Shown piece after piece: positions 38,089-64,000 of a stretch of 64,000 nucleotides of DNA (its first letter is position 1; every line of letters begins with the position of its first letter). Source of the stretch: Hericium rajendrae (lineage: Eukaryota; Basidiomycota; Agaricomycetes; Russulales; Hericiaceae); assembly GCA_033439255.1 (NCBI GenBank), contig CM065884.1:496001-560000 (forward strand), in the 5' to 3' direction. The position numbers were made by a program, and so were the translations under genes. A model generated the notes under the pieces. The model was not told the origin of the DNA. It searched no databases and worked only from the letters and a program-made list of their open reading frames with translations.

Positions 38089-38862
38089 TCAACTGCAATC
38101 GAGACCTGACGGTACAGCATGAGACGTACCCACTCCATTTACATGGATCCAGCCTCTGTTGAATACTCGGCGGAAGGACTTATTGCTTCCAAGAGCAACA
38201 ACATAGAGGTGTTCGCCGCCATTGGTGACTTGAGCGACCTCTATCGAGATGTCACAGATTTCCGTGAGTCGCGTGGCAGCACCCCGGGGCGTCATGGAAC
38301 CGACGACGCCAATTTCGTCGGGTTTAGGATAGACGCGGCGTTCGACATCTGCGTCATGCTGGCCCCTACTGATATCGATGATGAACTGGCTCGAGATGGG
38401 ATAGCCGAGATACAACGTAGGTGGATTTGAATAGGATCGTACGTTTAAGAGCGAGAGAGGGATGTCGGCCATGGCGATGGGCAATGCCGTCTGCACATAG
38501 TCCCAAAGCTTCAGATTCCATATTAGTTCGGCAGTTTATCAGGACGTCACTATGGGAGGACTCACCGCGTTCATCCCGTCCTCACGTTCTCTTTGTGAGA
38601 CAGGATGCAATTCGGGGGGTACGTCGCCAAGCGCCGGCGATCGCAATGTGCACGCTGTCCGTAAATTCTGCCGCAAAGCCTCTAGAGCCTCTGTGTCAAC
38701 CTTGGTGCTGTCAGTTGAACTAATGGAAGCATTCGAAATGGCCGCCACCGGACTGCCAGAGGATATATTGTGCACTGAGTCGTTGGGAGGATAGGCGGTG
38801 CCAGCGTCAGAGGAACATGCTTTGATGTTGTCAGAAAGATTATTGGGCGTATTGGGCGCCAT
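38089..38862 (-). CDS. hypothetical protein, parent of a decayed duplicate
   Basis: Two exons. Exon 1 starts at 38862 (MAPNTPNNLSDNIKACSSDA), is Ser/Asn-rich, and carries TEALEALRQNLRTACTLRS and VPPELHPVSQREREDGMNA up to a gtgagt donor near 38560. Exon 2 begins LWDYVQTALPIAMADIPLSL and reads on through YLGYPISSQFIIDISRGQHD and MTPRGAATRLTEICDISIEV, then GGEHLYVVALGSNKSFRRVF to a stop near 38089; an extra intron in exon 2 cannot be excluded. I recognise no domain. The exon-1 region has a degenerate copy with a stop near 42580-42740, which supports the idea that this sequence was once a gene and was duplicated with the HMG-box gene next to it. Confidence 0.4.
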
Positions 38863-40694
38863 CTAATGGTTCAAATGAGGTGCAGAGGATATGGGGCATT
38901 GAGGTAGTATCTATAGCTTTGCCGATAAAGAACACACGAAGGCCATCCCGGATGTGGCCGTCCGCATGCGGGAAGACGTTGGGAAGACGTACCTAACCGG
39001 CAGACAGGAACATACCTAGCGGGATGAAATTATGTATTACGAGGCGTGGAGTGCTTATGCACCTGCTCAGATACTATAATAACATGTTTACTGAGTCAAG
39101 TGGCGATTTTAAAGCATGATTCTCAGTGTGAGTCCTCTATTATGTTCGAGAGTTTGCGACTCGTCGTTCACGAATCATGATCGCGACATGTCTCCGAGTC
39201 GACCGGCTATCCTGCTGGAAAAGACACTGAGAACTCCGTTAGTTCATGTTTTACCGCTCGGTCAGTTATAAGATACCTTTATTTATGTCTGAAGTTGACC
39301 GTCCGAGCTTGACTCCCTGATAAGAAGATCATTTCGTCGTCGAAGCCTCATGAAGTTGAGATTCAGAAAGCAGAGTAGGTAGACCTAACCCTAGATCAAG
39401 CATGGAAGCCTCCGTCGACATCGACGACGTGGTCGTTCTGCATCTTCGATGTACTTTTCCTTGTTTATGCTGTGCTATTTCTCTGCCACGATTTGTTCGA
39501 TGCGCTTGATGAGGTACTGTCTGGTCCTGCATTTCGCGAAAGCTTACATTAGGTCTAGTGCGTCTTGGCTCAGCATCTTCGAGTCGTCGAGACGGACACA
39601 AAGTCGGTATGTGACAGACTCGCAAAGTGTTTTTCTTGCTAGTCAAACTTCGCTAATGCACTGAGAAATAGTCCATACAACCACTTCCACCGTTTTTGCG
39701 TGGTTCTGACAGGCTCTTTCCACCGCAGATCAAACGTACGATCTCGGCCTATCCAGTGAAGGGATATCTCTGAGCAGTTTCTCGCTCGTCAGAGGTAGGC
39801 AGAACTCATAACTATAACTCACGTATACCTGACAATCCTGTGGCGGCGAGGTTGAGTTAGGTCTGATGCTAGATGGCAAGTACGTCTTCCACCTAATATC
39901 TTCATCGCTGAGTTATCTCTAACTCAGCGATGTTTTCTGCCTCATAGTTCCAGGTACCTCGTCGCGCTGATCCGCTATTTAGCGCTACCAAGCATGAACC
40001 CAAAATGGAGCTGTATTGACAGGCGCTTTGACTGCCCGTGCCGCATCGGTGCTAACTCCCCACCTTGGTCTTTGTTCTGGCCCCGAGCAGTATAGCGTTC
40101 ACCATCCGGACACAAAGCGAGGCTCGTGCTATGATTTCCGATGCCTGCAAACCCCCTTCTTCCGACCTTACTTCGCTCGGCTGTTCTAGATCTGTGACCA
40201 TCTGCTCGACGTTCCTTCTCGAGATACATATAACTATTATACGTTATCGACGATGGAACGTCGGTCACAATATTATTACTGTTCATGCCTCATCCATGCT
40301 CGACACTCACTTAACTATTGTCAGGTCTTTTTAAACATCGACAAAATAGCACCGCGGCGGGGGCGACAGTCCACGTACCAGCTCGTGGCACTTGCGCGTC
40401 TGGCCGCTTTGTCAAATCGACCACACCTCAAGGCCAGGAACTGTGTGAGGACCACTCCGTACAGCCGCGCTTTTCTTTCAGGATCGTGGACGTCACGCAT
40501 GCATTGTCTCAATATGCCGTCTCTCTGTGGTTAGATGGCTATGCAGCACTCGAATCCTGTTATAAGAACTCTTGTCCTCCCTCATCGTCTCACCCTTCAT
40601 TTCTGCATCCCACTTGCTCCTATCCTTCTTTCTGCGCTTTTCCGTCGCAGACCCTTTTTTCTGTTACCGCCATCGACCCCTCTCATTCCTGAAA
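38863..40694. other. noncoding stretch upstream of the first HMG-box gene
   Basis: About 1.8 kb with no recognisable gene, homologous to 42750-44400. Frames are not conserved between the two copies, so the similarity does not reflect coding constraint. It may hold remnants of a lost gene and the promoter of the HMG-box gene. The last 100 bases before each HMG ATG are pyrimidine-rich. Confidence 0.5.
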
Positions 40695-41894
40695 ATGTCT
40701 TTCAGAGAAAATGATCCTTTCACCGTCATTCCCTTCAACTACAAAACCGCCATACCACCTCCCAGTTGGTACGGTAAACCCGTCCCGCCTGCTAATGAGC
40801 GCGCTCCACGTCAGCGCAATGCGTGGATCATCTTCCTCGCGCACGAATATGCTGAACGCAAGGCCCGCAAGGCCCCAGAGAAGCTTGCAAGTGAACTCTC
40901 CAAGGAAATTAGTATCAAGTGGCACAGTATGTCAGATGAGCAGAGACAGCCGTACAACGAGGCAGCAGCGTGGGAGGATGAGGCGCATCGCCGGCGCTGG
41001 CCTGAATATAAATACCACCCAAATTCGAAGGGAAGGAAGATGCAGGATGCAGGGAGACTGGCTGAGCGTGCGGAGAGACTGGCAGAGAAGCAAGTGAAGA
41101 TGGCTGAGAGGCAGGTAGAGACGGCGCAAATGCAAATGAAGAAGGCGCAAAGGCAAGCGGAGCAGGCGCAAAGGCAGGCAGAGGAAGCGCAAAGGCAAGT
41201 GGAGGAGGTCCGTCGAAGGGGGAATACTGCGAGGAGGGCGCAATCGGGCAACGGCATCGTGGGCCGAAGTTCCCGGGAGCCCACTACTTTAATTCAGCAA
41301 CAGCACGCCAGTTTCGGCCATCCGCAGGCAAGGAGCTCGAGGCGGACGGAGAAGACCAGTCGAAGGGAAGACGGCCATAGGGTGGAGGGTGCGCCGTCGG
41401 GCAACAGCACGGGCCAAGCTTTCTTGGATACTTCTCTTCTGATTCAGCAGCCGACCACTTCTGGCTACTCGCAGGGAAGCAGTTCATACTTTCGCGCAAC
41501 AGATGCAGCACAGGACGTGCGACCGGGCACCATCGTGGGCCAAGATTTCTTTGATCCCGCTTTCCTGTTTCAACAGCCGCCCACCAATTATGGTCACTCG
41601 CAGGGAAGCCGCTTATCGCACTTCTCTACGATGGAGGAGGTGCAGAGGGCACGATCGGGAAACATCACCGGCCAAAGTTTTCCAGAGCTCTCCCTTACGT
41701 TTCAGCAGCAGCCCTCCAATTTCGTCTACTCCCAGGGAAGCAGCTTACACTACCCCATGGCAGAGGAGGCACAAAGTGTGCAGTCGGGCGACATTGCGGG
41801 GCAAAACTTCTTGGATCCTGCTCTTCTGTTCCAGCAGCCACCTCCCAGCTATGGCCACTCGCAAAGAAGCAGCTCATACTTCCGCACAGCCTAG
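40695..41894 (+). CDS. HMG-box protein with coiled coil and C-terminal repeats, copy 1
   Basis: Single-exon gene of 399 aa starting MSFRENDPFTVIPFNYKTAI. Residues 38-108 form an HMG box of the MATA/Sox-like type: PRQRNAWIIFLAHEYAERKA, then LASELSKEISIKWHSMSDEQ, RQPYNEAAAWEDEAHRRRWP and EYKYHPNSKGR. The conserved first-helix RxRNAWIIF, the W of the second helix, and PYxxxAxxxExxHxxxxPxY are all present, so DNA binding is likely. Residues 115-185 are a heptad-rich coiled coil (AERQVETAQMQMKKAQRQ). The rest is a degenerate tandem repeat of about 40 residues (GQ.F.D...L.QQP....YSQGSS..... pattern), Q/S-rich and disordered-looking, like an activation region. The paralogue is at 44409. Probably a nuclear transcription factor; its targets are unknown. 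Confidence 0.8.
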   Translation: MSFRENDPFTVIPFNYKTAIPPPSWYGKPVPPANERAPRQRNAWIIFLAHEYAERKARKAPEKLASELSKEISIKWHSMSDEQRQPYNEAAAWEDEAHRRRWPEYKYHPNSKGRKMQDAGRLAERAERLAEKQVKMAERQVETAQMQMKKAQRQAEQAQRQAEEAQRQVEEVRRRGNTARRAQSGNGIVGRSSREPTTLIQQQHASFGHPQARSSRRTEKTSRREDGHRVEGAPSGNSTGQAFLDTSLLIQQPTTSGYSQGSSSYFRATDAAQDVRPGTIVGQDFFDPAFLFQQPPTNYGHSQGSRLSHFSTMEEVQRARSGNITGQSFPELSLTFQQQPSNFVYSQGSSLHYPMAEEAQSVQSGDIAGQNFLDPALLFQQPPPSYGHSQRSSSYFRTA

Positions 41895-42745: not shown

Positions 42746-44408
42746 ATGGATCATACTGACGGAAGCCTTCGAAACGGCCGCCGTCGGAGTACTAGAAGAT
42801 ATGTGGTCCACCGGATCGTTCGCTCAGATATTAGCTCGTCATTCACGATTCACGATCGCGACACGTTTCTGAGCCGGTTGGCTACCCTGCTGGAAAGACA
42901 CTGCAGATAACATCAGTGCATGGTATACCGCTCGGTTAGCTATGTAAATCCTTTTAATTTATCTCTGGTGTTGGTCGTCCGAGATCGACTCACTGAAAAG
43001 GCCATTTCGTTATCGAAGCCTCACGAAGTTGAGAAAGCAAAGTAAGTGGTCAGACAGACGATCCTGAGACACGAAGCGTTGAGTCCTGTCTACTCTGCCT
43101 CTGGGACTCAGTGGGAGACTAATAATAAGTAAGTGCCCCTAACCCTAGACCATGCGGCTCTCTTGAAATTGAATGGACTGTTAATATTGTCGACGTCGAC
43201 GGTCATGACGGATTGTTCTGCATCCTCAGCATTCTTTCTCTGCTTGTGTTAAACACTTTCTCTACCACCTTCTACTCGACATGCATGGTTAGGTGCTGTA
43301 TCTCGCGAAATCTCAGTTGATATCATGATAGGCGCTAACATCTCGCCCAGCATCTTCGAGTCTTCGAGGCGGAAGCCGACACAAGCTCGTAACATGTTTC
43401 TTGTGCTAGTGAAGCTTCGCGATTGCGTTATGAACATTTCCAAACACAACCATTCCCACCAGTTTTTGCATGGTCCTGACAGTCTCTCTCCACCGTAGAG
43501 CAAATGTTACTTGCATCGCAGTGCAGTTTCGCAACGTCAGAGGTAGGCAGAACCCATTATACTTACGATTCACATATACCCGAAGATGCGGTGGCAGCGA
43601 GATTGAATTAGGTGACAAGTCTGATGCTAAATGGCAAGTGCAGTACGTCTTCAATCTAATATCTTCATCTCGGCATGTTTTCTGTTCCAGGTACCTGTTC
43701 GCGCAGATACTCATTCTAGCGCTTTCAAGCATGAGCCCAAGGTGGAGCTATTTCGGCGGGCGCTTCGACCACCCGTGCCGAATCGGTAGTAACTCCCGCC
43801 TTGGTCTAGACCTTTGTTATGGCCCAAGCAATATAACGATCGCCCTTCACACACAAAGCGAGACTCGTGCTATGATTTCAGACATCCGCCAACCCTCTTC
43901 CGGCTGGTCTAGATCTGTGGCCATTCGCTCATTGTTCCTTCTCAATGCGTCTACTGCTATGCCCTATCGACGCTCTGGCGTGGATCACAAGATTGTCTTT
44001 GCTGGGACCTGGGTTTGATTTATTGACTCGTGTGCCTCATCCGTGCTCGATACTCAGTCACGGTCTCAGCAGGTTCTTGTAATACCAACAGCATAGCGCC
44101 GATGCGAGGGCAGTAGTCCACCGTTTCAGCTCGTGGCCCTTGCGCGGCCGAATCGCTTTGACAGACTGCCACATCGTACGCCCAGGGAATGTGCAAGGAC
44201 CACCCTGCGGCACTGCCTTTTTTTTTTCAGGATTTCGCATGGGCCGCACGTGTTGACTCAATGCGCGGACTCGTGTCTATGCGGCACTTGAAATCCGTTA
44301 TAAGAGCTCATGTCCTCCCATCTTACTCGATCTTATCATTCCTCCGCCCTGTCCCTCACCGACAGTGCCCTTCCTCTCTATTACCTCCATATCTGCTTCT
44401 CATTAAAA
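42746..44408. other. noncoding stretch upstream of the second HMG-box gene
   Basis: Homologous to 38863-40694, with no frame shared by both copies. Nothing further recognised. Confidence 0.5.
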
Positions 44409-45341
44409 ATGGATCGGTCCTCCCAGGAAAAGAATCGCTCTTCCCAGGAACAGGATCCTTTCTCCGTCATCCTCTGCGGACGCAAAACCCCCATTCCGCC
44501 TCCTAGTTGGTACCACTATCCCATTTCATCCACCACCGCCAATCAGAAGATTCTGAAGCCGCGCAACAAGTTTATCATCTACCGCTCGCACATGCATGCC
44601 GAGCGCAGGTATGCCGAGTGCATGGATCACGCTGCAGGGAAAAGAGGCGTTCCCGAGCGCGTCCTCTGCGCTCATATTGCTAAAGACTGGGGAGACATGT
44701 CGGAGAGGGAGAAGCAGCCGTACAGCGAAGCGGCAGCATGGGAGGAGAAGATGCATCGATTGCGCTGGCCTGGGTGCAAGCACTCGGAGCGGGAGCCGAA
44801 GCCAATCGAGACGACAGAGATGAGGGTGAAGAGGACGCATCTGCAGGCGGCGCAGTGGAAGGCGGAGGAGGCGCGCCTGAAGCTGGGAGGGGACGTGGCA
44901 GAGAGAGCGCGATCGGGCAACACCGTGGACCAGAACTTCTTGGGCCCCCCTTCTCTGATTTGGCAGCAGCCCACCAGTTTCTGCCACTCGCAGGAAAGCA
45001 CCTCCTATACGACAGCGGAGTACGCGCTGAGGCGGTCGAAGAAGTCCCACCGGAAAGAAGATGGCCACAGGGTGGAGACGACGCGGTCGGGCGACGTCGT
45101 GGACCAAACCCCCTTTGAGTCCATTCCTCTGTTTCAGCAACAGCTCGTCAGTTTCGGCTACGCGCAGGGAAGCAGCTCGCACTTCCTCGCCGCGGAGGTG
45201 GAAAGACAGGCAGGGACGGCTTGTCGGACAGATGACTCGAGAGTGGAGAGTGCGCGATCGGGCAACTTTGGGGGCCAAAGATATCCGGAGCTCTTTCTTC
45301 CGTTTCAGCAGACATCCTCCAGTCTTGGCTACTCACAGTGA
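44409..45341 (+). CDS. HMG-box protein, copy 2 (shorter)
   Basis: Single-exon gene of 310 aa, paralogue of 40695-41894. It begins MDRSSQEKNRSSQEQDPFSV (a short SSQE duplication not in copy 1), then TPIPPPSWYHYPISSTTANQ. The HMG box is LKPRNKFIIYRSHMHAERRY, then VPERVLCAHIAKDWGDMSER, EKQPYSEAAAWEEKMHRLRW and PGCKHSERE. The coiled coil is reduced to one short helix (TEMRVKRTHLQAAQWKAEEA) and the C-terminal repeat to about three units (VDQNFLGPPSLIWQQPTSFC and similar). It ends SSSLGYSQ and TGA (45339-45341). The HMG box is more diverged than the context of the duplication would suggest, so the two proteins may have different targets. Confidence 0.75.
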   Translation: MDRSSQEKNRSSQEQDPFSVILCGRKTPIPPPSWYHYPISSTTANQKILKPRNKFIIYRSHMHAERRYAECMDHAAGKRGVPERVLCAHIAKDWGDMSEREKQPYSEAAAWEEKMHRLRWPGCKHSEREPKPIETTEMRVKRTHLQAAQWKAEEARLKLGGDVAERARSGNTVDQNFLGPPSLIWQQPTSFCHSQESTSYTTAEYALRRSKKSHRKEDGHRVETTRSGDVVDQTPFESIPLFQQQLVSFGYAQGSSSHFLAAEVERQAGTACRTDDSRVESARSGNFGGQRYPELFLPFQQTSSSLGYSQ

Positions 45342-49867: not shown

Positions 49868-50344
49868 TATGCTCTAATTCAACGTGCTGGACCTTTTCAT
49901 CAAAGCACCTGGAGCTATTGGACAATGACGACTGTCTGTCTTTTCAGGTCTCGTGTTCCTTACAGATATGTTGTCTGGTAACTCATTAGCGTAGGTAAGT
50001 ACGCCGGATCTACGGGCTGACCGCAATCCGTCGTCCGCATCTCCCGGCGCGACGAGCAAGCTATTCATGAGTCTGACACCAAACGTTAGATAAATTAAAT
50101 AGCTTCAATATATTGGGTTACACGTCCTGTGACGTGCGTACAAATGAGCGTGGTTATACTATGCGAAGCTACAAGGAGCGTGGGGATATAGGTATCAGTA
50201 ACGATACAGAACATCATAATCGTTAAATAAAGGGAGTGTGATGAGGCTATTGAAGCCAATAATCTCTCGTAACATAAGCGAGCGAAAGTAGCAGTTCTTG
50301 CGGAGGCGATCTTGGGTGTGCTTGAGACGGACGCTTTGACTTGT
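49868..50344. repeat. 3' flank shared with 54190-54639
   Basis: The sequence 50085-50265 downstream of the large minus gene matches 54285-54435 downstream of its paralogue (both contain agcttc(a/g)atatattgggtt, then gcgtacaaatgagcgt and actatgcgaagcta). This shows the duplication includes the 3' UTR and beyond. Otherwise there is no coding signal. Confidence 0.65.
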
Positions 50345-51935
50345 TTAATGGGCGCGCTCTTTGCCCTTCCCAGAGCCTTGCTTTGTCACTCGTTTCTTCG
50401 ACGGACCAGCGGCCGCTTGGTCTTGAGCCGTTGGCGCATCTCCAGACTGGTCCAACTTGCGCTTCCTGGACGGTCCTGCACCTCCAGTCCCAGACTTTGC
50501 AGCCCGACGACGAGGCTTAACAGCAGGCTTGACGGGAGATGTCCATGTGACAACGCGATACCGAAGCGTGTACAGTGTGTCTGTGGACAGACGCGGACGC
50601 GTGATCGTGGCTGCCGGGTCGACGTACTCGGACTGTACGGACTCGGACACGGAGGCCGACACCGTCGCAGAAATGGACTCGGGGGCCTTCTTGTCTTGCT
50701 GCTCTTTCTCGAAGTCCTTGATCGCCTTCTCTGCAACAGCCTGGCGAGGAGGGAAATATCAGAATCAGGAGCAGGGGATACAGTGCACAATGACTTACCA
50801 AGGACAGCATCGAGCTTGCGTCCGGCTCTTGGCCCGAGGGTTGGAAGACGGGATCGGAAGCCCTGACTCCAAGGCCCCGCAGCGCGATCACGAAATGGAG
50901 AGCCTCCAGAAATTCACGCGTAAACTTGGTCCTGTCAGGAGTGATAATGAAGGCCCCGACCCATTTGAGCTGTGGGACGATGAGATCGCCCTCTTCAAAG
51001 ATTGGCTTGGCCTCTTCTTCCTCGGATGCCGGAGGGCCATTGTCAGCGTCAGTCGCCGAAGCGAGAGCCTCCTTGGGGATTGGTGAAGACTCTTTGCGAC
51101 CATCTGCAACGGGTTGCAGGCCTTGAATTGTATCATCATCTTGGTGCCTCTTGCCCGTGGGACGCGCAGCGGTAGGGGCAAGATCAGGCCGATCGCCTGG
51201 AGGGCCTTGCTGCAGGTTTGAAGAGGAAGCCTGCGCCTGCGAAGAAGCTGGACGAGACATGCTGGGCTTGGATGGAGTCCTCTGTTCTGCCCGAGAATTC
51301 GCCTTCGCCGACAACTGTTCTGCGTACTTCTCTGCGAGAGAGTCCCAATTGTCAGGCCGAACGAACAATAAAAGGCTGAAGCAGTTCCCTTCGCTGAGGA
51401 AAGAAGGAATAACGTCATCTTTGAATTCGTAGAACGCAAAGAGAGCCTGTTCGCTGAGTTGAGGGAGGTAAGACTTCAGATGTTTCTGGATGTCGAGGGA
51501 CATTTTTTGGCGCAGCATGGGGTCATCGGGGAACCAGCCAATGCCTCCTAAATCGTAGGCCTTACCCTCCCATATATACAGGAGATGATCGTCTTCGCCA
51601 TCGCCTTCCCCCGCGAGGAAAGAGAAGAAGTCTGGCCTCCGTTCCGTCTTGTCCGGTTTCTTGAGAGAATACTGCGGAACGACGCCAACCACATAGCGAC
51701 CACTGGGGTCCTTGCAGGCATTGGAGAATTCCACGAGTATGTGGTTGATGGGCAAGTATGCTCGCGTTTCTGTCTTGGGAGACTTCTCCGCCCGGCGAAA
51801 AAAGCGATTGATCTTGGTAAAGAATTCTCTTCCCTGTACAGAATTCAGAATGGCCGAAGACAATTGGATACAGAGAAATCTTACGGGGTCACCCTCTTCA
51901 ATAGAAGTAAACACACTAGCGGCGCCAGCGCTCAT
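50345..51935 (-). CDS. large nuclear-type protein with PD...ExK signature, copy 1
   Basis: Two exons joined by a 50-60-nt intron near 50740-50797; about 510 aa. Start MSAGAASVFTSIEEGDPVRF at 51935. The N-terminal 200 residues are a folded domain: LPINHILVEFSNACKDP, VVGVVPQYSLKKPDKTERR, then PDFFSF (Pro101-Asp102) and the strand LLYIWEGKAYDL (Glu123-x-Lys125), with a helix YLPQLSEQALFAFYEFKDD and the block NCFSLLLFVRPDNWDSLAEK. A hydrophilic, disordered middle (NLQQGPPGDRPDLAP etc.) precedes a second folded piece (LIVPQLKWVGAFIITPDRTK, FTREFLEALHFVIALRGLGV). The C-terminus is basic with nuclear-localisation-like clusters (KPRRRAAKSG, GPSRKRKLDQ, GPSKKRVTKQ). The Pro-Asp...Glu-x-Lys pair in strand context resembles PD-(D/E)xK nucleases, but the assignment is hypothetical. 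Divergently paired with 52414-53016. Confidence 0.7.
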
Positions 51936-52413
51936 AATGGGCTCTTCGAGAGGGGCGCGGATGAGAAACAGACGAGGGGAAGGAGAAACCAGGAGCAACG
52001 AAATCAGAGAGAGACACTAGTCTTTTAAATGGCTGCCTCCATCTCTGTGGCCAGCAATGCAAGTCCACGTCGTAAATGAGGGCCAGATGCTGCATTGTCC
52101 TCTGCCGCAAGGCAGGGCTAATGACTCATAGGCGGCTATAATCAAAGCGCAGCTGGAGAATATACTGTACGGATGCCTGAAGACAATGATTTTGATAACA
52201 TGCTGTCCAGTCGCGGAGAAGGAATTTGAGAACAATGGGGAGTCAAGTAAGACCTCAAAGCGTCGCGTCGAGGACTGGGCGCTAACTTGACCTTACAACA
52301 AGAACGTGACCGCGTCACCAAGGACGTGAGGCGCCGAGTGTCCGCGTTGTCTTGAACTCAACCATCGACTTCACTTGTGCTTTCATCCGCCCTCACCCCT
52401 CACCATTATTACC
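51936..52413. promoter_or_regulatory. divergent promoter of gene pair 1
   Basis: 478 bases between two divergent starts. It contains the 11-mer acgtgaccgcg at 52304-52314, about 100 bases upstream of the small gene's ATG. The same 11-mer occurs at 57073-57083 in the equivalent promoter of pair 2 and at 62043-62053 near the array's right end. The core resembles a CACGTG/ACGTGA bHLH- or bZIP-type site. The position upstream of two paralogous genes suggests it is a shared regulatory element. Confidence 0.45.
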
Positions 52414-53016
52414 ATGCCCCGACGGAACTTTAAGAGTCCATATCTCCTTGGATACAAAGTGGACTCCGAAGGAAATCATATCTGCAACTCCCTAGGACCA
52501 GAGCCAACACCTGTCTCTCGAACGTCCAGACGTCATGTAAGTCTCTTCATTTCGTTAGATCCATATACGTTCTGAAGTGCACGGTAGAAAAATGTACTCT
52601 ACAGCAAAGACAACGAAGTGTTCGACCAGATTCCTCCTCATCTTCTCGTTCATCCCAAGAAGCCACACTGCCGTCCACCTATATTTCACTTCGGGTTCGC
52701 CGTGACCTCGGTGCAGCTGTTCGACTATGCTCTGAGGCGGAAGCTTGTACCAGCCGAGTATCGCGGACATGGGAGGCTGTTGGGAGACACGATACTGGTG
52801 GCGATTGCTGAGCTGGACCGTGTCAGTGGCGCCAAGTTGTCTTTCGAGTCCGTCAAGCATGCCGATTACGACTGGGTTCTGACGCGGTACACCAACTACA
52901 ACTACTATTATGAGGAGCTTGAAGATCGGGAGGAGGAGAAAATCACCGACTTCATGCGGCAAGAACTCGACATCCAGGACGCACCGCGATGGTATCGCAG
53001 CACCATTAGTTTCTAA
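52414..53016 (+). CDS. small protein of a three-member tandem family, member 1
   Basis: Two exons, 52414-52536 and 52588-53016 (51-nt gt..ag intron), 183 aa. Starts MPRRNFKSPYLLGYKVDSEG. After the splice: KNVLYSKDNEVFDQIPPHLL, VHPKKPHCRPPIFHFGFAVT, LFDYALRRKLVPAEYRGHGR, ELDRVSGAKLSFESVKHADY, DWVLTRYTNYNYYYEELEDR, EEEKITDFMRQELDIQDAPR, then WYRSTISF and stop. Shared with the members at 57206 and 59485: (E/R)xFDxxPxxLLVxP, HFGxxV, YxxxRxLxP, LxxxxGAKL, D/HxY/WVLxRYxNY and PPRWY (here APRWY). No transmembrane segment or signal peptide. I recognise no known family. It is divergently arranged with the large PD...ExK gene to its left, as in pair 2. Confidence 0.75.
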
Positions 53017-54639
53017 TACGTGAGTTCCAGCGTTCGAGTCATACACTCCTATATTGATATCTGTCGATTCATCTATAGCCAGCCATCGCATTGCCCTGAG
53101 ATTGCTGCGATAGCATGACGGCAACCTTTCCAAGTTGGCTTCCTTATTGTCCCTACCCGTCTCTCCTCTGCACCCATCGTATCGGCAGTTATGGCCAGGG
53201 GGATTCGTTGGCATTCGCTGTGTCGATGGCGTATATTGCTTCCTGCGCAAGGTTCAGATATGGACTCCTATTTTCGACCTCGGCTCTCCATGCTCCCTCT
53301 GAAGCATCGCATCCGCCGCATCACCCACTCCCAGCGTATACATGCCTTTCCTGGGATGCGAAAAGACCAACCGGCTCAACGTATTCAACAGTCGGATCCG
53401 AGCGACGGCCATAGACTGCGTCCTCAACGGCACCAGCGTGCCACTCTGTCCACCGCCAACGAGTCAAATCCCGAGCCCAAAGCCTAGACACTCGTCACTT
53501 GTCCTCTTGGACCGCTTTCTAAATGACAGCGGAAGTGGCTTTGGGGGCCACGATTATGGATACCATGCGCCGGTCAATATTTTGGAACGCATCACGCGCG
53601 TCGCCACGCACGATCTGGGCCATCATCTGCGCGGTATTCAAGCTCGGCGTCTGGCTTACCGCGCCCTTCAGTTCGTCTGCATGGCACCAGCGTCGAGTGG
53701 TCGGTCACCAGGGCGCCGCAGATCCACTCCTGACTATGCGATTTGCATCTCCAGGATTGCTCGGGGATGGATGCTGTCGTTGTGTGTCCAGCGCGATGAG
53801 GCTTCGTGATTGGTTTTGGCGCGCAAGGCCGGCTACAACGAAATACGTCGATAGCTCCGAGCGCATCGCAGGTGCATCTGGACTTTATCGAGAGGTTGCG
53901 TTGGGCTCGGTGGAGGCAATGGGCTTTCAGGTGCTTGAAGGACGGGATTGGATTGGACCAGGCAGCGTTGAGAGCGTGGTGGCATGGAGGGCTTCGACGG
54001 CACAGTACTTGATTTTTCTCGATTAACCGTATCGTCGTGTCCTCGGCGGTTGTTTGACGCTACGTCGCAACTTAGATTAAGATTCTGCATGTCTGCTCTT
54101 GAGTGATCCATCAATATTCTCTGTGAAGGACCAATCGTACGTGGCTAGAAGAGAACGCAAGGTAGGGAGCGACTAGTTGGGTCAGCATATGGTACTGCCA
54201 ACATCAATACCTTTCATAACGTAGAAGGCTTACCACAACGGCATCTCAGTAAGTCTTCGTCCTGCGCGTTCTGACACCATACATAAAAATAAATAAAATA
54301 GCTTCGATATATTGGGTTAGACATCCTGCGTACAAATGAGCGTAATTATACTATGCGAAGCTATAAAGAGCGTGGGGATACATGGTTCAGTAACGATACA
54401 ACATGATCCAATAATTGTAATAAGGAGCGTGAAAAGGCCGCAAGGCCCATACATTTGAGTCCGATACCTGTTTATACAGATCGTAAAAAGAGCGTGATGG
54501 CGTTGCAAGATGGCGTCCAGCGTGAAATAAATTTAGCACAGTGAAGGAGTGGATGCCGCGGCTGTCGATACTTGACTTAGAGTATGCAGATCGGCGGTCT
54601 TGAGACGAGATTCTGGCGTTACGAGGCATGAGCATTCGC
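53017..54639. other. intergenic between gene pairs 1 and 2
   Basis: About 1.6 kb. Plus frames at 53115-54026 look partly coding but change frame and have no recognisable family; the corresponding position after the other small genes is filled by the degenerate repeat described at 57990. The end (54285-54435) is the shared 3' sequence of the large minus gene. No mobile element or RNA gene was seen. Confidence 0.4.
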
Positions 54640-56710
54640 CTACTGGATTTTCTTCTTCCCAGCCTTTTTGCAGATGCGCGTAGGGTTGACCCGTCTCTGC
54701 GTGTTCGACGGGCCAGGTGCATTGTCCGAAGCTTGAGCAGCCGGAGCGACCTTACGCTTCTTCGAGCGTGACGGCGCCGCAGCGGCGATTCCCGCACCTT
54801 GATTATCAGCAGGCTGAGATCGTTTCTTTGAAGTCCGAGTCCGTGCTGCGCTATCAGCTGCGGGCGCATTGAGGCTTTGGCTCTGATTATTGATGCCGGC
54901 TGGCTGGGCCTTGATACGCGAGCTTGAGCGAGTGCCTTTTCCAGCTGGCGCAGCGAGAACCGGAGCTGCATTTGCATTCGATGGCCCAGCGAGCGCAGGT
55001 CCGCCAGCTCCAGAACCAGAGGCCTCATCGGGAGCAGAAGTCTTGGTAGTCTTCTTCCGCTTTGTCCGCGCGGCCAGTGCAGGTCTAGCAGGTTCCGACG
55101 ACTGGCCGTCGTTTGACGGGCCAGCCGTGGCTTGCTCGGTCCCAGGCTGTTCATGTTCCGCCGAGCCGTCGTTCGTAATAGGTTCGCGAGCGTCAGCGGG
55201 AGCTACTGGGTCGTTGGTGGGTGGCAAGGCGTTGACAGGGTCCGTGTTGGGCACGACTGCATCCAGAATTCCAGTCTCGGAAGGTCCTGCAAGGGCAACG
55301 ACTGCCCGACGCACGGGAGCGGGAGCAACCGCCGCCGGTTTTGCGGGAGCAACCGCCGCCGGCTTCGCGGGTGTGCTGAAAGCCTGCGCCTCGTCAGGAT
55401 CAAAGACAAGGCTGGCGTTGAGGGGAAGTCCTGCGTTGGCGTCAAGGTGAAGCTCTGCTTCAGCATTTGGCGTGGCTGGCGCTTCGTTGGCACCGGCGAC
55501 AGATTGTTCTTCAGACTCTTGAGCCGCATCTGCACGCTCTTGCCGAGCAATATGGCGGGCGTCGCGTTCAGCCGAGCCCGCGCCGCCAGTTGTAACCTTG
55601 AAATTCACGACTGAAAGGGTAGGCTCGCTAGCTCCCGTATCACAGGAGCCGGCCGACGTGGCCAAAGACGTCTCTTGAGAACGAAAAGTAAAGTTGGGGT
55701 CTTTGACGGTATCGTCAACTGTACTCGGGTCCACGGGGACAGGTCGCTCAGGCTCCACTTTGCTCAGAGCATCGACAGCCTCTTGAGCCTTATTCTGCAT
55801 CAAATGTTAGCGATGACCCGTAGAGAATAACGATAATAAAGGGACAGACCTTGCCAGGCTGCTTGAGCTCTTCTTCCGTGATGCCAGGGGGAAGTCGAAA
55901 CAGCGGGTTCTGATCGTGCAGGAACCCAAGCGACTCGGTTGAGATCTTGAATGCATTGCGAAAGTAGATGCTCAAGTCGGTCTTGGTTTCGTCAAGCACA
56001 GGTAGGCAAGAATATGGGACGGTTGGGATAGGAAGGTCCTCGTCGTCGAAGACCCATTCTTTCTTGTCCTTATACCGCGCACCATACTTTATTTCCAAGG
56101 CATCCCAGTTGGACATGCGAACCCACTTGAAGAGCATAAAGTTGTCTCTGAAGGTAAGGAATGTATAAAAAACATCCACTTTGTAATTGCAGAAGGCACA
56201 CATCGCCTGCTTCCTCAATTGCGCGAGGTGAGAAGGTATAGCGTCCTCCGCAGCTTGTTTCACCATCTCCCTCTCCTTGCTGACGGGCAATGAAGCATCG
56301 GGAAGAAGGTCTAAGGTCTTGTCTTCCCAGATAAATGCAAGTTGGGGGTCGTCTAGTAGCGCCGCGGTGAGAGCCTTTCTGAACGACGAGCCGTGCCAGT
56401 CCGGATATGTACGAACGGGCTTGCCAAAGTCAGCCTCGAGGCAACCCTGGGGGTTTACACCTAATACGACATCTGGGTCTGTGTGCTTGCTAGTGATGGA
56501 GAACATGACGAGGATAAAATTGATAGCGACATAGTTGAACACTTCCTGAGTGTAGTGCTTCTTGGCGTACTCGAGAAAAGTTGACAGCATCTCGATGACA
56601 ACTTTCCTCTTGATGGTCAACATCTAGAATAGTACGTCAGCCATGTGATACGATGAGTGGGGCACGTTACAGACCAATTCGTTCATATCGGGGGCGGTAC
56701 CAGCGCTCAT
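54640..56710 (-). CDS. large nuclear-type protein with PD...ExK signature, copy 2
   Basis: Three exons: 56675-56710, about 55850-56623, and 54640-55794; both introns begin gtctgt. About 650 aa. Starts MSAGTAPDMNEL, then MLTIKRKVVIEMLSTFLEYA. The N-terminal domain parallels copy 1: FNYVAINFILVMFSITSKHT, VVLGVNPQGCLEADFGKPVR, TYPDWHGSS (Pro86-Asp87), LAFIWEDKTLDL (Glu112-x-Lys114), then HLAQLRKQAMCAFCNYKVDV and FMLFKWVRMSNWDALEIKYG. The sequence is much diverged from copy 1, yet PD, (Y/F)IWExK, the QL..QA..AF helix and the F...VR..NWD(S/A)L block are kept. A long Ala/Pro/Glu-rich disordered region follows, with an imperfect repeat (KPAAVAPAKPAAVAP). The C-terminus has strong basic clusters (RTKRKKTTKTSAPDEA, SRSKKRKVAP, CKKAGKKK), consistent with nuclear import. 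Divergently paired with 57206-57982. Confidence 0.7.
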
Positions 56711-57205
56711 AATGGAAGGAAACCCGAATGAGGGAAAACGGAGAAGGGGGAAAGCCTACAAGGCTATCAGTCCCTGCGCCATGAATTTATACATATTCCT
56801 TGATTCTATTGTTGGTCGTGCTTTGACGATATCGAGACCACAGATACTGTACTTGTGGTTGGTGTGGACGGCGTGTCATTGTCCGCTGAGGACACGCCCG
56901 AATTCGTGACTCACCGACGGACATTGTTCTTGTCAAAGCGGGACCATCAATGGGGAAACGTGGATATGGACAATACATTTTCGAGCTGGTGGGTAGACCG
57001 CAGAGGAAGTATTTGCCACTAGGAGGCCGCACTAGTACTGAGCCGCGTAGCTTTGACTTCAGCTGGCGCAACACGTGACCGCGACGCCCCGAGGCGACCG
57101 TGATGTTGTTGTGAGCCACCGCCGACCCCAACTTGCTCGCAAACGTTGACAACAACGTTCATTACATATCTACCTACATCCTGTCACACGTCTCTGCTGG
57201 CCCCA
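56711..57205. promoter_or_regulatory. divergent promoter of gene pair 2
   Basis: 495 bases between divergent starts, equivalent to 51936-52413. The 11-mer acgtgaccgcg is at 57073-57083, again about 120-130 bases upstream of the small gene. No TATA-like motif was judged reliable. Confidence 0.45.
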
Positions 57206-57982
57206 ATGCCCTCTACATCTTCGTCATCCTCCCGCTCATCCTCCCCCTCATCTTCGTTTTTCTCCAGCTCTTCCTCTCGCTCTTCGTCCGCATCTCCTCC
57301 TCCTCGAGTATCGGAGTCTGAGCAGTACGAGCTCGATTCGGACGGGAATCCTATCAGGACATCGCATGGATACAAGCCGGCAAAGCGTGTTGTTGTTAGG
57401 CAATATCTGGCAAGTCATAGCTTTTCCACATCTACGCTGCTTCTTCGATACTTATTGCTCTCAATCGCAGCACCGCGACATGATCATCGACCCCTTTGAA
57501 CCGAGAGCCTTCGACATGCTCCCTTCTGAGCTATTGGTATACCCCAAGAAGCCTCACAACAACCGGAAGCATTACCATTTCGGCGTTGGCGTATCATACG
57601 AGCGTTTATGGGAGTATTGCATCGCTCGCGACCTAGCACCCAAGCATTTTCGCGAAAATCCACTATGCAGTAGCGCAATGGTGGATGCGGCTTTGCAGGA
57701 GCTTGATCGTCTCTGCGGTGCAAAACTTCAGTTGTGCAGTATAACCCACCTGGAGCATGACTACGTTCTCTCGCGTTACAGCAACTATACATGGTTCAAA
57801 GAAAAACTGAGCGATCGGGATGAAGAAGAGGTGGTCAATATTATTCACAGAGAGCTTGGTATCAGCGAGCCGCCGAGATGGTACCATAAACTTGTCAAAT
57901 CCCGTGAGTCGCTTTGCCTTGCTTTTCTGCCTGTGCGTCCTAACATCTTGATATCATAGCGTCTGGTTATGGTCTCTTCTGA
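57206..57982 (+). CDS. small protein of a three-member tandem family, member 2
   Basis: Three exons: 57206-57409, 57471-57903 and 57960-57982; 219 aa. The first intron uses a GC donor (CTG|gcaagt). Exon 1 is a Ser-rich stretch, MPSTSSSSSRSSSPSSSFFS, then SESEQYELDSDGNPIRTSHG and AKRVVVRQYL. Exon 2: HRDMIIDPFEPRAFDMLPSE, LLVYPKKPHNNRKHYHFGVG, YERLWEYCIARDLAPKHFRE, LQELDRLCGAKLQLCSITHL, EHDYVLSRYSNYTWFKEKLS and DRDEEEVVNIIHRELGISEP. The final exon supplies PSGYGLF. The core aligns with members 1 and 3 throughout exon 2. No recognised domain. It lies head to head with the PD...ExK protein at 54640. Confidence 0.8.
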
Positions 57983-59484: not shown

Positions 59485-60236
59485 ATGCTGTCTTTATCTT
59501 CCGAATTCTCATCCTGTCGTTCTTCTTGTCGCTCTTCCTCCGCATCTTTTCCTTCAGTATCGGAGTCTGAGCAGTACGAACTCGATTCGGACGGCAATCC
59601 TGTCAGAACATCGTATGGCTACAAGCCAGCGAAGCACATTGTTGCTCGGCGCTATCTGGCAAGTCATAGCCTTTCCGTGTCTACGTCAGTTCTTCCTTTG
59701 ATAGTGCTCTCATCTCAATTACAGCACTGCGCCACGATAGTCAACCCTTGGGAGCCGAGAGCTTTCGACATGCTTCCTCTCGAGCTCCTGGTATACCCGA
59801 GCGAGCCACACAACAACCGAAGGCTTTACCATTTCGGTATTGGCGTGTCATACGAGCGTTTGTGGAAATATTGCATCGCTCGCGATCTCGTTCCCAAGCA
59901 CTATTACAAAGACCGAGCTTTCAACAGCGCCATGGTCTATGCAGCTGTGAAGGAGCTTGACCTTCTCTGCGGTGCAAAGCTTCAGTTTTACGGTATAATC
60001 AACCTGGAACATCAGTATGTTCTCTCGCGTTACAGCAATTACACGTGGTTCAAAGAAAAACTAAGCGATCGCGACGAGGAGATGGTAGTTGGCATTATTC
60101 ATAGAGAGCTCGGCATCTGCGAGCCACCGAGATGGTATCATAAGCTTGTTCAATCCCGTGAGTCGCTGCGTCTTATTTCTCTGTCTGTGCGCTCTGACGT
60201 TTTGTTACCATAGCATCTGGTTATGGTTTCATCTGA
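59485..60236 (+). CDS. small protein of a three-member tandem family, member 3
   Basis: Three exons: 59485-59658, 59725-60157 and 60214-60236; 209 aa. Intron 1 again starts with a GC donor (CTG|gcaagt). Exon 1: MLSLSSEFSSCRSSCRSSSA, then SESEQYELDSDGNPVRTSYG and AKHIVARRYL. Exon 2: HCATIVNPWEPRAFDMLPLE, LLVYPSEPHNNRRLYHFGIG, YERLWKYCIARDLVPKHYYK, VKELDLLCGAKLQFYGIINL, EHQYVLSRYSNYTWFKEKLS, DRDEEMVVGIIHRELGICEP, then PRWYHKLVQS. The last exon gives PSGYGFI. It is closest to member 2, including intron positions and the 433-nt exon 2 and 23-nt exon 3 lengths. Unlike members 1 and 2 it has no divergent partner gene. Confidence 0.8.
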
Positions 60237-61930: not shown

Positions 61931-62134
61931 GAGAATGTAGCCGCGTGATTCACTGATCAATTGCATGGGAAATCAATCCCTTGCTCATGCGTTTGAAGGG
62001 AGATTCTGGAGGTATTCGAGACAGCAAAAATAGAGAGGATCCACGTGACCGCGTCAAGCGAACGGGCGCTTGTGACGCGCCTCCGACGTCTTGATCGTAG
62101 CGGTGCAAGCACCAGTTCCCGGCTCTGAGTACTT
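61931..62134. repeat. truncated promoter copy at the right end of the array
   Basis: Resembles 59220-59360, upstream of member 3, and includes the acgtgaccgcg 11-mer (62043-62053) and aacgggcgctt (62061-62071). It looks like the promoter end of a further unit whose gene is missing. The similarity ends just before the hairpin at 62135. Confidence 0.5.
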
Positions 62135-62226
62135 AATTCAGAGGTGATGCAATTGCGTAGCAGTCTGGCTACCTTGCTCAAGAGCAAGGTAGCCGGACTG
62201 CTACGCAAATGCATCGCTTCTGAATT
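62135..62226. repeat. 92-nt near-perfect inverted repeat (hairpin)
   Basis: Two 45-nt arms (62135-62179 and 62182-62226) separated by two bases; 41 of 45 positions pair perfectly. Of the four differences, three give G-T wobble pairs and one is a mismatch. The arms centre on accttgctc / gagcaaggt. The structure would form a long stem-loop in DNA or RNA. It may be a MITE-like foldback, a short-RNA precursor, or a rearrangement scar. It lies where the tandem array ends and AT-rich DNA begins. Confidence 0.8.
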
Positions 62227-64000
62227 GAATATTTAGAGCTAAAAATTGGTGTTTGTATCGCTACGATGTATTAAAGACCTTATGATGGCAGGAAGCGTTC
62301 AGAACATAAAATTGCATTATGACGAAGGATTTGGATGGGAGAGAGTATCTACATAGAGAGACAGCTGACATATAGCTGCGATATCTATATATTATCTTAG
62401 TATTCAAGAAGGATTAATTTTTGGATTTCATAATAATGTTCACTACAAGCTGCAGATTCAGCTCAATGTTTCAATTGGAACTACGATAACAGGCAATTTG
62501 CTGTTATTACAAAATATCAGAAGAGGCATAAAGAATCTGTGCCGATCGGAATGCAGACATTTATCAGTCTGGGTTTTTAGTCTGTTCCTCCGTACATCTC
62601 ATTCAATGATGATGCTGATGCCCATGATCTGCGTTAAGCAAGTCTGCACTGAATCATAGTTGTTAGTAATTATATCTACGCAGTATACACAACGTGATGC
62701 ATACGGCAAGTTGACCAGCGTATTTGTTTTTTCAAGACGTAGGGTGACGATTTGGGTTCCCTAAGATGCAATAAGACAACATACATGCATGTATATGCAG
62801 ATATTACTTACATCGGACTGGACAGAAGTAGACTGAACGTGGCCATATTCAACTTCTCCGAACGAACTCCAAAAAAATACCCGAGAATTGTTCTATAAAG
62901 TAATAAAGTAATTATCAGCTTAATAACTATAATAGTCAATATAATAATAAATAATACCGTGAAGTTATTCATGATGGGCTTAGGTGTCAAGATTCGATGA
63001 GGGGGTGATAGAAATGGGTGGTGACAGGCAATACCACTTTGTCGCTCGTTGGCTTGTATTTAAGTCTTCATGAAAAGAGACTATGTAATGTCATTTCGGT
63101 ATGAGAGTGGATCTGCAAAAGTTAAATTGATGGGCACAGCTGGGGTCATCACAAATCATATTTCATACAATTCTATAGCAGAACTGTCAGAATTCACCGT
63201 ATACCATACATGTGTAAATTTAGATGACGTACATATCAATACTTGTACCTAGGCCCGAGATGTTGTGGGTCGGTTTGAATGACTTTATGTAGGCTTGGCA
63301 TAAAAAACTGAAAGAAGCATGTCACTTTAGGATGCGCCACACTCTAATTTGTCTATATCATCGGAGTCAAGAGCATGTAGTGTGAGTAACTGTAAGATGA
63401 TAAGATGACGAAGGTGGCATCAATGTCAAGGCTGGATCAGACTCACAGATCCATCAAGCTCAACATAGAATCAAGTTGACACCCATGCTTGCTGCCTTCT
63501 AGCGACAGAACACAATCAATCCTACGATAGGCGTTCATTGGTTCCTTTTGTAACATTGATAGCATCTATGATAAACATTTGACATGGTTAAAGCCAATAA
63601 TCAGACACAGGATATTTACTATAACTCACAGAGAAGATTTAGCATCGACCGTTATTCGCGCAAAAGAGGAAGTATTAGTATTTATCTTGAGTTTTAACAA
63701 AAATGCGCGTAGTTGTGGCTACTCACACAAAAGTACAGCTCATCAGGATTGGAAATGGTGTCTGCGGGTTCATGCAGATACTCGACTGGAGGGAGTGATT
63801 TCTTAAGTATGTGATTGCCCCTGCTGACTGCCATTATCGATGCAAATATCAGACACATGACAATTCACAGAAAGTGATCATCAAAACGAGACACTGTACC
63901 AGCTTCAATATAGCATGCGACGGGACTCATGATCGTCGAATCATTGAGCATTCAAACCAAAGGTATCATTCCCTGATGATTACAGGTGAGATAGTATGAT
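62227..64000. other. AT-rich region without genes
   Basis: About 1.8 kb clearly richer in A/T than the rest of the window. Only short open frames, most with no similarity and often poor in Gly/Ala codons. Stretches such as 62840-62970 have A/T runs with (ataat)n-like sequence. No gene, repeat family or structural RNA was recognised. Confidence 0.5.

What the first reader, a model, noticed from the sequence alone, without database searches (positions are those of the whole stretch)
50345..57982. Tandemly duplicated divergent gene pair: PD...ExK-like nuclear protein plus small partner
Two head-to-head pairs with the same layout (large minus gene, ~480-495 bp promoter, small plus gene) at 50345/52414 and 54640/57206. 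The large proteins are very diverged but keep a Pro-Asp...(Y/F)IWExK signature, a following Q-rich helix and NLS-like basic C-termini. The small proteins keep a common core and are single-domain. A duplicated two-gene unit with strong sequence divergence and a nuclease-like signature is what one would expect of a paired self/non-self or conflict-type system. This is a hypothesis; neither family is recognised here.
Basis: partly seen in the sequence, partly recalled or inferred. Interest (0 to 1): 0.75.

Follow-up and report, generated by a model that had tools for sequence, protein, structure and literature searches.

The report
Fungal paired nuclease-and-partner gene family
This mushroom-type fungal genome carries about fifteen copies of a probable nuclear DNA- or RNA-cutting enzyme, almost all locked head-to-head with a small partner gene under a shared promoter, while the small gene also exists in many solo copies, a layout that suggests a toxin kept in check by its own antidote but has not been tested.

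Summary
Two divergent pairs lie in the window: L-A/S-A (478 bp between ATGs) and L-B/S-B (495 bp). They belong to a family not recognised by Pfam or PDB sequence search. The 46.8-Mb genome has 15 L and 44 S places; 14 of 15 L have a head-to-head S, on six contigs. L and S co-diverge over 8 pairs (Mantel r 0.81, 22 of 40,320 permutations). The 9 L domains aligned (of 15 places) keep E...D...ExK...QxxxQ invariant, the PD-(D/E)XK signature. The 7 tails read carry basic, NLS-like clusters.

Pair promoters share CATTGTCC and ACGTGACCG boxes; the spaced combination occurs 4 times in the genome, all in pair promoters. A ~155-bp 3' element follows 7 of 10 L with any 3' flank held, 6 of 6 with 2 kb.

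About 30 S places lack an L. S-only copies arose repeatedly and look constrained. I read this as a nuclease with an antidote-like partner (0.4). The fold is unconfirmed (L pLDDT 40) and no other fungal genome was available. The mating-type reading is rejected.

The parts
50345..51935 (-). L-A: probable PD-(D/E)XK nuclease, 3 exons (51935-51885, 51833-50799, 50740-50345)
   Evidence: domain alignment
51318..51812 (-). L-A nuclease-like domain (E15, D61, E82-x-K84, Q118xxxQ122)
51936..52413 (.). Bidirectional promoter A, with CATTGTCC, TGACTCA, TCAAAGCG and ACGTGACCG boxes
52414..53016 (+). S-A: small partner, 2 exons (52414-52536, 52588-53016)
   Evidence: alignment
50072..50247 (-). 3' element of L-A, about 98 bp after the stop
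54640..56710 (-). L-B: probable PD-(D/E)XK nuclease; start MSAGTA, short first exon, tail with KRKK and SKKRKV
56081..56587 (-). L-B nuclease-like domain
56711..57205 (.). Bidirectional promoter B, with CATTGTCC and ACACGTGACCGCG, no mismatch
57206..57982 (+). S-B: small partner, 3 exons (57206-57409, 57471-57903, 57960-57982)
54270..54438 (-). 3' element of L-B
59485..60236 (+). S-C: third, solo small gene, 3 exons; tandem S-only duplicate of S-B (78.8% DNA over 730 bp)

Best explanation
L is a nuclear-targeted PD-(D/E)XK-type nuclease. S is its dedicated cognate partner, most likely an inhibitor (antidote). The two are co-expressed from one bidirectional promoter, so a nucleus that makes the nuclease also makes its brake. 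Extra solo S copies extend protection. Shown: the two-gene unit, its shared promoter boxes and 3' element, co-divergence of L and S, invariant catalytic-type residues, basic tails, and many solo S but almost no solo L. Inferred: the fold, nuclear location, nuclease activity, co-expression, inhibition by S, and the biological use (selfish toxin-antidote, incompatibility, or defence against foreign DNA).
For: 14 of 15 L places have a head-to-head S, including 5 of 5 off C7. L and S distances correlate over 8 pairs, r 0.81, 22 of 40,320 permutations as high. E, D, ExK and QxxxQ are invariant in 9 of 9 L domains aligned, at 26-45% identity to the first. Basic clusters occur in 7 of 7 tails read. 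The spaced CATTGTCC...ACGTGACCG pair occurs 4 times in 46.8 Mb, all at L/S promoters, reversed control 0 (the spacing was set from those four, so the weight lies in its absence elsewhere).

30 of 44 S places lack an L nearby. On a tree of 28 S (9 paired, 19 solo) the labels are interleaved, at least 7 forced changes, so solo S arose repeatedly. S-only sharing is seen directly: C1 and C7:461 kb at 91.7% DNA over 626 bp, and S-B/S-C. Solo S look constrained: NG86 dN/dS 0.15, 0.20, 0.32 and 0.45 in the four solo-solo comparisons. The L at C7:795.9 kb is interrupted over the stretch that holds PD in its relatives, beside an intact S domain.
Against: No confident fold for L (pLDDT 40.4) or S (54.7; 0 of 154 PDB matches at E <= 0.001). 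No test of toxicity or inhibition. dN/dS of 0.14-0.45 in the 11 of 16 comparisons that gave a value shows no sign of an arms race. No strain or species comparison, so presence/absence polymorphism, the hallmark of a selfish system, is unknown. One L (C7:632.4 kb) has no head-to-head S; a convergent S lies about 2.7 kb away. On C13 both L and its S show a stop in the search frame, which may be introns or decay of both. Solo S could equally mean that S has an L-independent job, or has an L too diverged to be found.
Confidence: 0.4

Rival explanations
1. L and S are two subunits of one nuclease complex with an ordinary nuclear job (DNA repair, chromatin or transposon control). S activates or targets L.
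For: Co-divergence, shared promoter boxes and purifying selection all fit an obligate complex.
Against: 30 of 44 S places have no L nearby, and the four solo-solo S comparisons show constraint. A 15/44 copy imbalance is odd for a 1:1 housekeeping complex.
Confidence: 0.25
2. S is the main, L-independent player (for example a DNA-binding or stress protein) and L is an accessory or decaying gene beside it.
For: S is far more numerous. One L place is interrupted (795.9 kb) and another shows a stop in the search frame (C13:1326.7 kb), which may be an intron.
Against: Catalytic-type residues of L are invariant in 9 of 9 aligned. L has its own promoter box, at background level in solo S, and its own 3' element.
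Confidence: 0.15
3. The unit is a mobile or formerly mobile element whose nuclease served transposition.
For: Dispersed pairs on six contigs (C1, C4, C6, C7, C9, C13); PD-(D/E)XK nucleases occur in some transposons (recalled).
Against: No near-identical whole-unit copies seen: for the four L used as queries the closest other L is 63%. Recent copies carry S only. Terminal repeats and target duplications were not searched for systematically.
Confidence: 0.1
4. An A-mating-type-like HD1/HD2 pair, which is also a divergent two-gene unit.
For: Layout only.
Against: No homeodomain match in the window L and S. STE3 matches lie on C2 and Homeobox_KN matches on C3 and C1, not C7.
Confidence: 0.01

Closest known systems
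SPOK spore killers of Podospora (passages read in PMC6660238 and PMC9972908)
   Same: A fungal protein with a predicted PD-(D/E)XK nuclease needed for killing; a QxxxY motif after the catalytic lysine resembles QxxxQ here; several genes in a family.
   Different: SPOK carries killing and resistance (a kinase domain) in one protein. Here the partner is a separate gene with no kinase match, and no killing has been shown.
Neurospora Sk-2/Sk-3 two-gene spore killers (one passage in PMC9972908)
   Same: Separate genes for killing and resistance.
   Different: No sequence comparison was made, and no drive has been shown here.
wtf drivers of fission yeast (start of abstract of PMC7032740 in a listing; one passage in PMC9972908)
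   Same: A family with both drivers and suppressors resembles pairs plus solo S.
   Different: wtf encodes both products from one gene, and they are not PD-(D/E)XK nucleases (the latter recalled).
Wolbachia cifA/cifB, nuclease type (start of abstract of PMC11342252 in a listing; nuclease detail recalled)
   Same: Two-gene toxin/rescue unit with PD-(D/E)XK-type domains.
   Different: Bacterial tandem genes; no sequence test was made.
HD1/HD2 mating-type gene pairs of mushrooms (recalled)
   Same: Divergent paired genes.
   Different: Different proteins, a different locus, and here many copies in one genome.

Membership tests
PD-(D/E)XK nuclease superfamily | Conserved D ... (D/E)xK residues | tested here: met
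   D61, E82, K84 invariant in 9 of 9 aligned L domains; the interrupted tenth L in hand was left out and five L places were not fetched
PD-(D/E)XK nuclease superfamily | Alpha/beta core fold | tested here: inconclusive
   AlphaFold pLDDT 40.4 from one sequence; Uma2 at E 0.025 for 1 of 9, sub-threshold; no meaningful PDB sequence match
PD-(D/E)XK nuclease superfamily | Metal-dependent nucleic-acid cleavage | not testable with these tools
   needs an assay
Two-gene toxin-antidote system | Toxin gene linked to its cognate partner | tested here: met
   14 of 15 L with head-to-head S; Mantel r 0.81 over 8 pairs
Two-gene toxin-antidote system | Coordinated expression | tested here: inconclusive
   shared bidirectional promoter boxes; no RNA data
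Two-gene toxin-antidote system | Toxicity of one product, rescue by the other | not testable with these tools
   needs an assay
Two-gene toxin-antidote system | Presence/absence polymorphism between strains | not testable with these tools
   no other fungal genome held
SPOK spore killers | C-terminal kinase domain for resistance | tested here: not met
   no Pfam kinase match to the window L and S
HD mating-type pair | Homeodomains at the MAT locus | tested here: not met
Transposable element | Near-identical dispersed copies of the whole unit | tested here: not met
   closest other L 63% for four L queried
Transposable element | Terminal repeats and target duplications | not tested
   not searched for systematically

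The most novel reading that the evidence does not exclude
A previously undescribed, genome-wide two-gene toxin-antidote family of a mushroom-type fungus: a nuclear PD-(D/E)XK nuclease and a separate antidote of a fold not recognised here, driven by a dedicated bidirectional promoter. A halo of solo antidotes has been bred by repeated S-only duplication, and the family acts in nuclear conflict such as spore killing or nucleus-nucleus incompatibility in the dikaryon.
Probability: 0.2. Interest if true: 0.88.

Novelty: new variant of a known kind. Interest (0 to 1): 0.62.

Why it matters
If S restrains L, this would be a nuclease-based two-gene toxin-antidote system in a mushroom-type fungus. The listings (15 of 18 shown; 4 of 4) held no paper whose title or abstract start describes one in that group; these searches were few. 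The system would be unusually rich in natural variants: about 15 L, 14 of them paired, plus about 30 solo partners in one genome, ready for specificity and cross-protection tests. Even without toxicity, a promoter module found in this genome only at these gene pairs and a 3' element more conserved than the coding sequence make a clear regulatory puzzle.

Tried and rejected
Pfam on L and S: nothing above cut-off. PDB sequence search with profiles: 3 and 1 matches, all E above 1. AlphaFold of the L-A domain alone: pLDDT 40.4, unusable. AlphaFold of S with the three window sequences: pLDDT 54.7, pTM 0.52; Foldseek against PDB best E 0.41, no meaning. Viral contigs with window S and L: no relative confirmed. 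Mating-type link: rejected. L relic beside solo S-C: best tblastn E 0.019 over 66 residues inside the S-C gene itself, taken as chance. Possible S relative at 38173-38439: E 0.076, not accepted.

Literature: no paper listed was one I recognised as describing this family (15 of 189 shown; 12 of 12; 15 of 18; 15 of 30; 0; 4 of 4; 0; 2 of 2; 8 of 25; listings only, plus passages of PMC9972908, PMC6660238 and PMC9815663). The name PD-(D/E)XK could not be searched as written, and the form tried in its place gave 0 occurrences in every paper shown, so a paper using it could be missed.

Rows dropped: from A1, the interrupted L of L006 and duplicate loci; five L places (C6, C13, C4, C7:807 kb, C7:812 kb) were never fetched. 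From A2, partial hits, duplicates and the weak 38173 hit (28 used). The Mantel test used 8 of 9 pairs in hand. dN/dS used NG86; YN00 failed for several, and 5 of 16 comparisons were saturated. The chance figure for pairs off C7 assumed 14 S places; one search lists 13. Outer bounds of the promoters of pairs 703, 696, 665, 725, C9 and C1 were approximate, and the k-mer control shuffled two-base blocks. The tails are open frames that I chose by resemblance to L-A; other frames there are also basic.
Full report
What is in the window. The two head-to-head pairs exist as described. L-A runs 51935 to 50345 on minus in three exons (start MSAGAA, tail GKERAH) and S-A 52414 to 53016 on plus. L-B runs 56710 to 54640 and S-B 57206 to 57982 (the L-B splice sites were read from printed sequence only). 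ATG-to-ATG spacers are 478 and 495 bp. A third small gene, S-C, lies at 59485-60236, with intron positions matching S-B and a GC-AG first intron. S-C is a tandem copy of S-B (78.8% DNA over 730 bp); similarity resumes further into the 3' flanks, and no L was found with S-C.

The family. The window is C7:496001-560000 of a 46.8-Mb, 19-contig genome. Single-protein searches give 15 L places (combined) and 44 S places (some of them fragments). They concentrate at C7:460-820 kb, with members on C1, C3 (S only), C4, C6, C9, C11 (S only) and C13. 14 of 15 L have an S head-to-head; five of these L are known by coordinates and strand only. From these calls, domain-to-domain gaps are about 0.8-1.05 kb in 13 of the 14 and 1.6 kb on C4. 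On C7, 9 of 10 L are so placed, against a mean of 0.64 and a maximum of 5 in 20,000 random placements with S fixed. The exception, C7:632.4 kb, has a convergent S about 2.7 kb off.

L protein. Nine L domains align with E15, Y19, Q47, D61, E82, K84, Q118, Q122, A123, A126, F145 and R152 invariant at 26-45% identity to the first. The order helix with E, strand, strand with D, strand with ExK, helix with QxxxQ, strand is what PD-(D/E)XK enzymes show; the element assignment is my reading, not a prediction. One of nine matches Pfam Uma2 at E 0.025, below its cut-off. The single-sequence AlphaFold model is unusable. The tails of 7 of 7 L read carry basic clusters, often GPSKKR-like; C9 has KKRGRPAK, an AT-hook-like motif (recalled), and 703 has RGRG repeats. 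These are open frames chosen by resemblance to L-A, not full gene models. A nuclear nuclease is likely but not proven. The L at C7:795.9 kb is interrupted over the stretch that holds PD in its relatives. Its length there nearly matches the uninterrupted relative, so I take it as a lesion rather than an intron; a sequencing error is not excluded.

S protein. 28 full-length S align over about 126 residues with N93 and W125 invariant. No family or fold is recognised.

Coupling of L and S. Over 8 pairs the L and S distance matrices correlate at r 0.81; 22 of all 40,320 permutations reach it. Pairs therefore duplicate and diverge as units. The tree of 28 S (9 paired, 19 solo) interleaves the labels, with 9 changes needed and at least 7 forced by well-supported branches; 500 of 500 label shuffles need as few, so the labels are not clustered at all. 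Solo S thus arose, or lost their L, many times. A fresh example is S on C1 and at C7:461 kb, 91.7% DNA over 626 bp, with no L match at the C7 site; which copy came first is not known. NG86 dN/dS is 0.14-0.45 in the 11 of 16 comparisons that gave a value, including 0.15, 0.20, 0.32 and 0.45 for the four solo-solo ones. That is purifying selection, with no sign of an arms race.

Promoter. Among 8 pair promoters CATTGTCC is in 7 and CGTGACCGC in 6; in 100 shuffles no 8-mer exceeds 4 and no 9-mer exceeds 3. The S-side box has one orientation in all 6, and the two boxes lie about 190-215 bp apart in four. CATTGTCC-N(180-210)-ACGTGACCG, a spacing set from those four, occurs exactly 4 times in the genome: those four pair promoters (A, B, 696, 725) and nowhere else, with 0 in the reversed control. 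Within 750 bp upstream of the S domain, exact CATTGTCC is in 6 of 8 pairs, 1 of 13 solo S on C7 and 36 of 400 random windows. The 13-base S-side box at 2 mismatches or fewer is in 7 of 8 pairs, 6 of 13 solo S (two of them in the other orientation) and 19 of 400 random windows. Pair 703 lacks both exact boxes and pair 665 lacks an exact S-side box. Solo S thus tend to keep the S-side box, while the L-side box falls to background.

3' element. A block of about 155 bp follows L in the same orientation at 7 of the 10 L for which any 3' flank is held: 6 of 6 with 2 kb or more, plus C9 with 1.5 kb. L725 and L795 (1.5 kb held) and C1 (0.64 kb held) show none; in 696 and 665 it lies 1.8-2.0 kb beyond the domain, and those two were found only after the profile was iterated. 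It is found nowhere else in 260 kb of C7 (alignment). Between A and B it is 79% identical although their coding DNA gives no blastn match. It carries a repeated CACGCTCnTTTGTA-like motif. The strict form CACGCTCNTTTGTAC occurs 4 times in the genome, three of them after L and one at C8:64223, unexplained. The RNA fold of the A copy is modestly stable (z -2.47, 2 of 200 shuffles as stable).

Mechanism. The asymmetry (L almost never without S, S often without L, S-only duplication, an interrupted L beside an intact S domain) is what an enzyme plus inhibitor produces. SPOK proteins show that a predicted PD-(D/E)XK domain can be a fungal killer, with its lysine required for killing (passages of PMC6660238, PMC9972908). 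Here the restraining function, if it exists, would sit in a separate gene. I give 0.4 to nuclease plus antidote-like partner, 0.25 to an ordinary two-subunit nuclease, 0.15 to an S-centred function and 0.1 to a mobile-element origin. The mating-type reading fails.

Limits.

Noticed in passing
window 40572-41894 and 44310-45341, +: Two neighbouring HMG-box genes (Pfam HMG_box E 1.8e-9; the second E 1.7e-4, below its cut-off). HMG boxes bind CATTGT-like sites (recalled), which is the L-side promoter box: a possible local regulator.
   Followed up: no
window 62094-62267: A long near-palindrome: the stretch matches its own reverse complement at 80% over 174 bp; a 36-bp piece recurs at C7:670.8 kb. 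Hairpin or small element.
   Followed up: no
window 62044: A lone CGGTCACG box (the S-side promoter box core) about 1.8 kb after S-C, with no family gene found beside it in the window.
   Followed up: no
window 38089-38496, -: ORF with a sub-threshold match to the S profile (E 0.076) keeping the SN of the S motif RYSNYTW; perhaps a remote S relative.
   Followed up: partly
G000:C8:64223: The strict 3'-element motif occurs here away from any L place found; possibly an undetected further L.
   Followed up: no
window 57410-57470 and 59659-59724: GC-AG first introns shared by S-B and S-C.
   Followed up: no
L013:1-959 and L048:7485-8524: S-like ORFs in two neighbouring parts; the main part is 88% identical in amino acids (124 codons) between C7:707 kb and C7:718 kb: a recent S-only duplication with diverged S modules in tandem.
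   Followed up: partly
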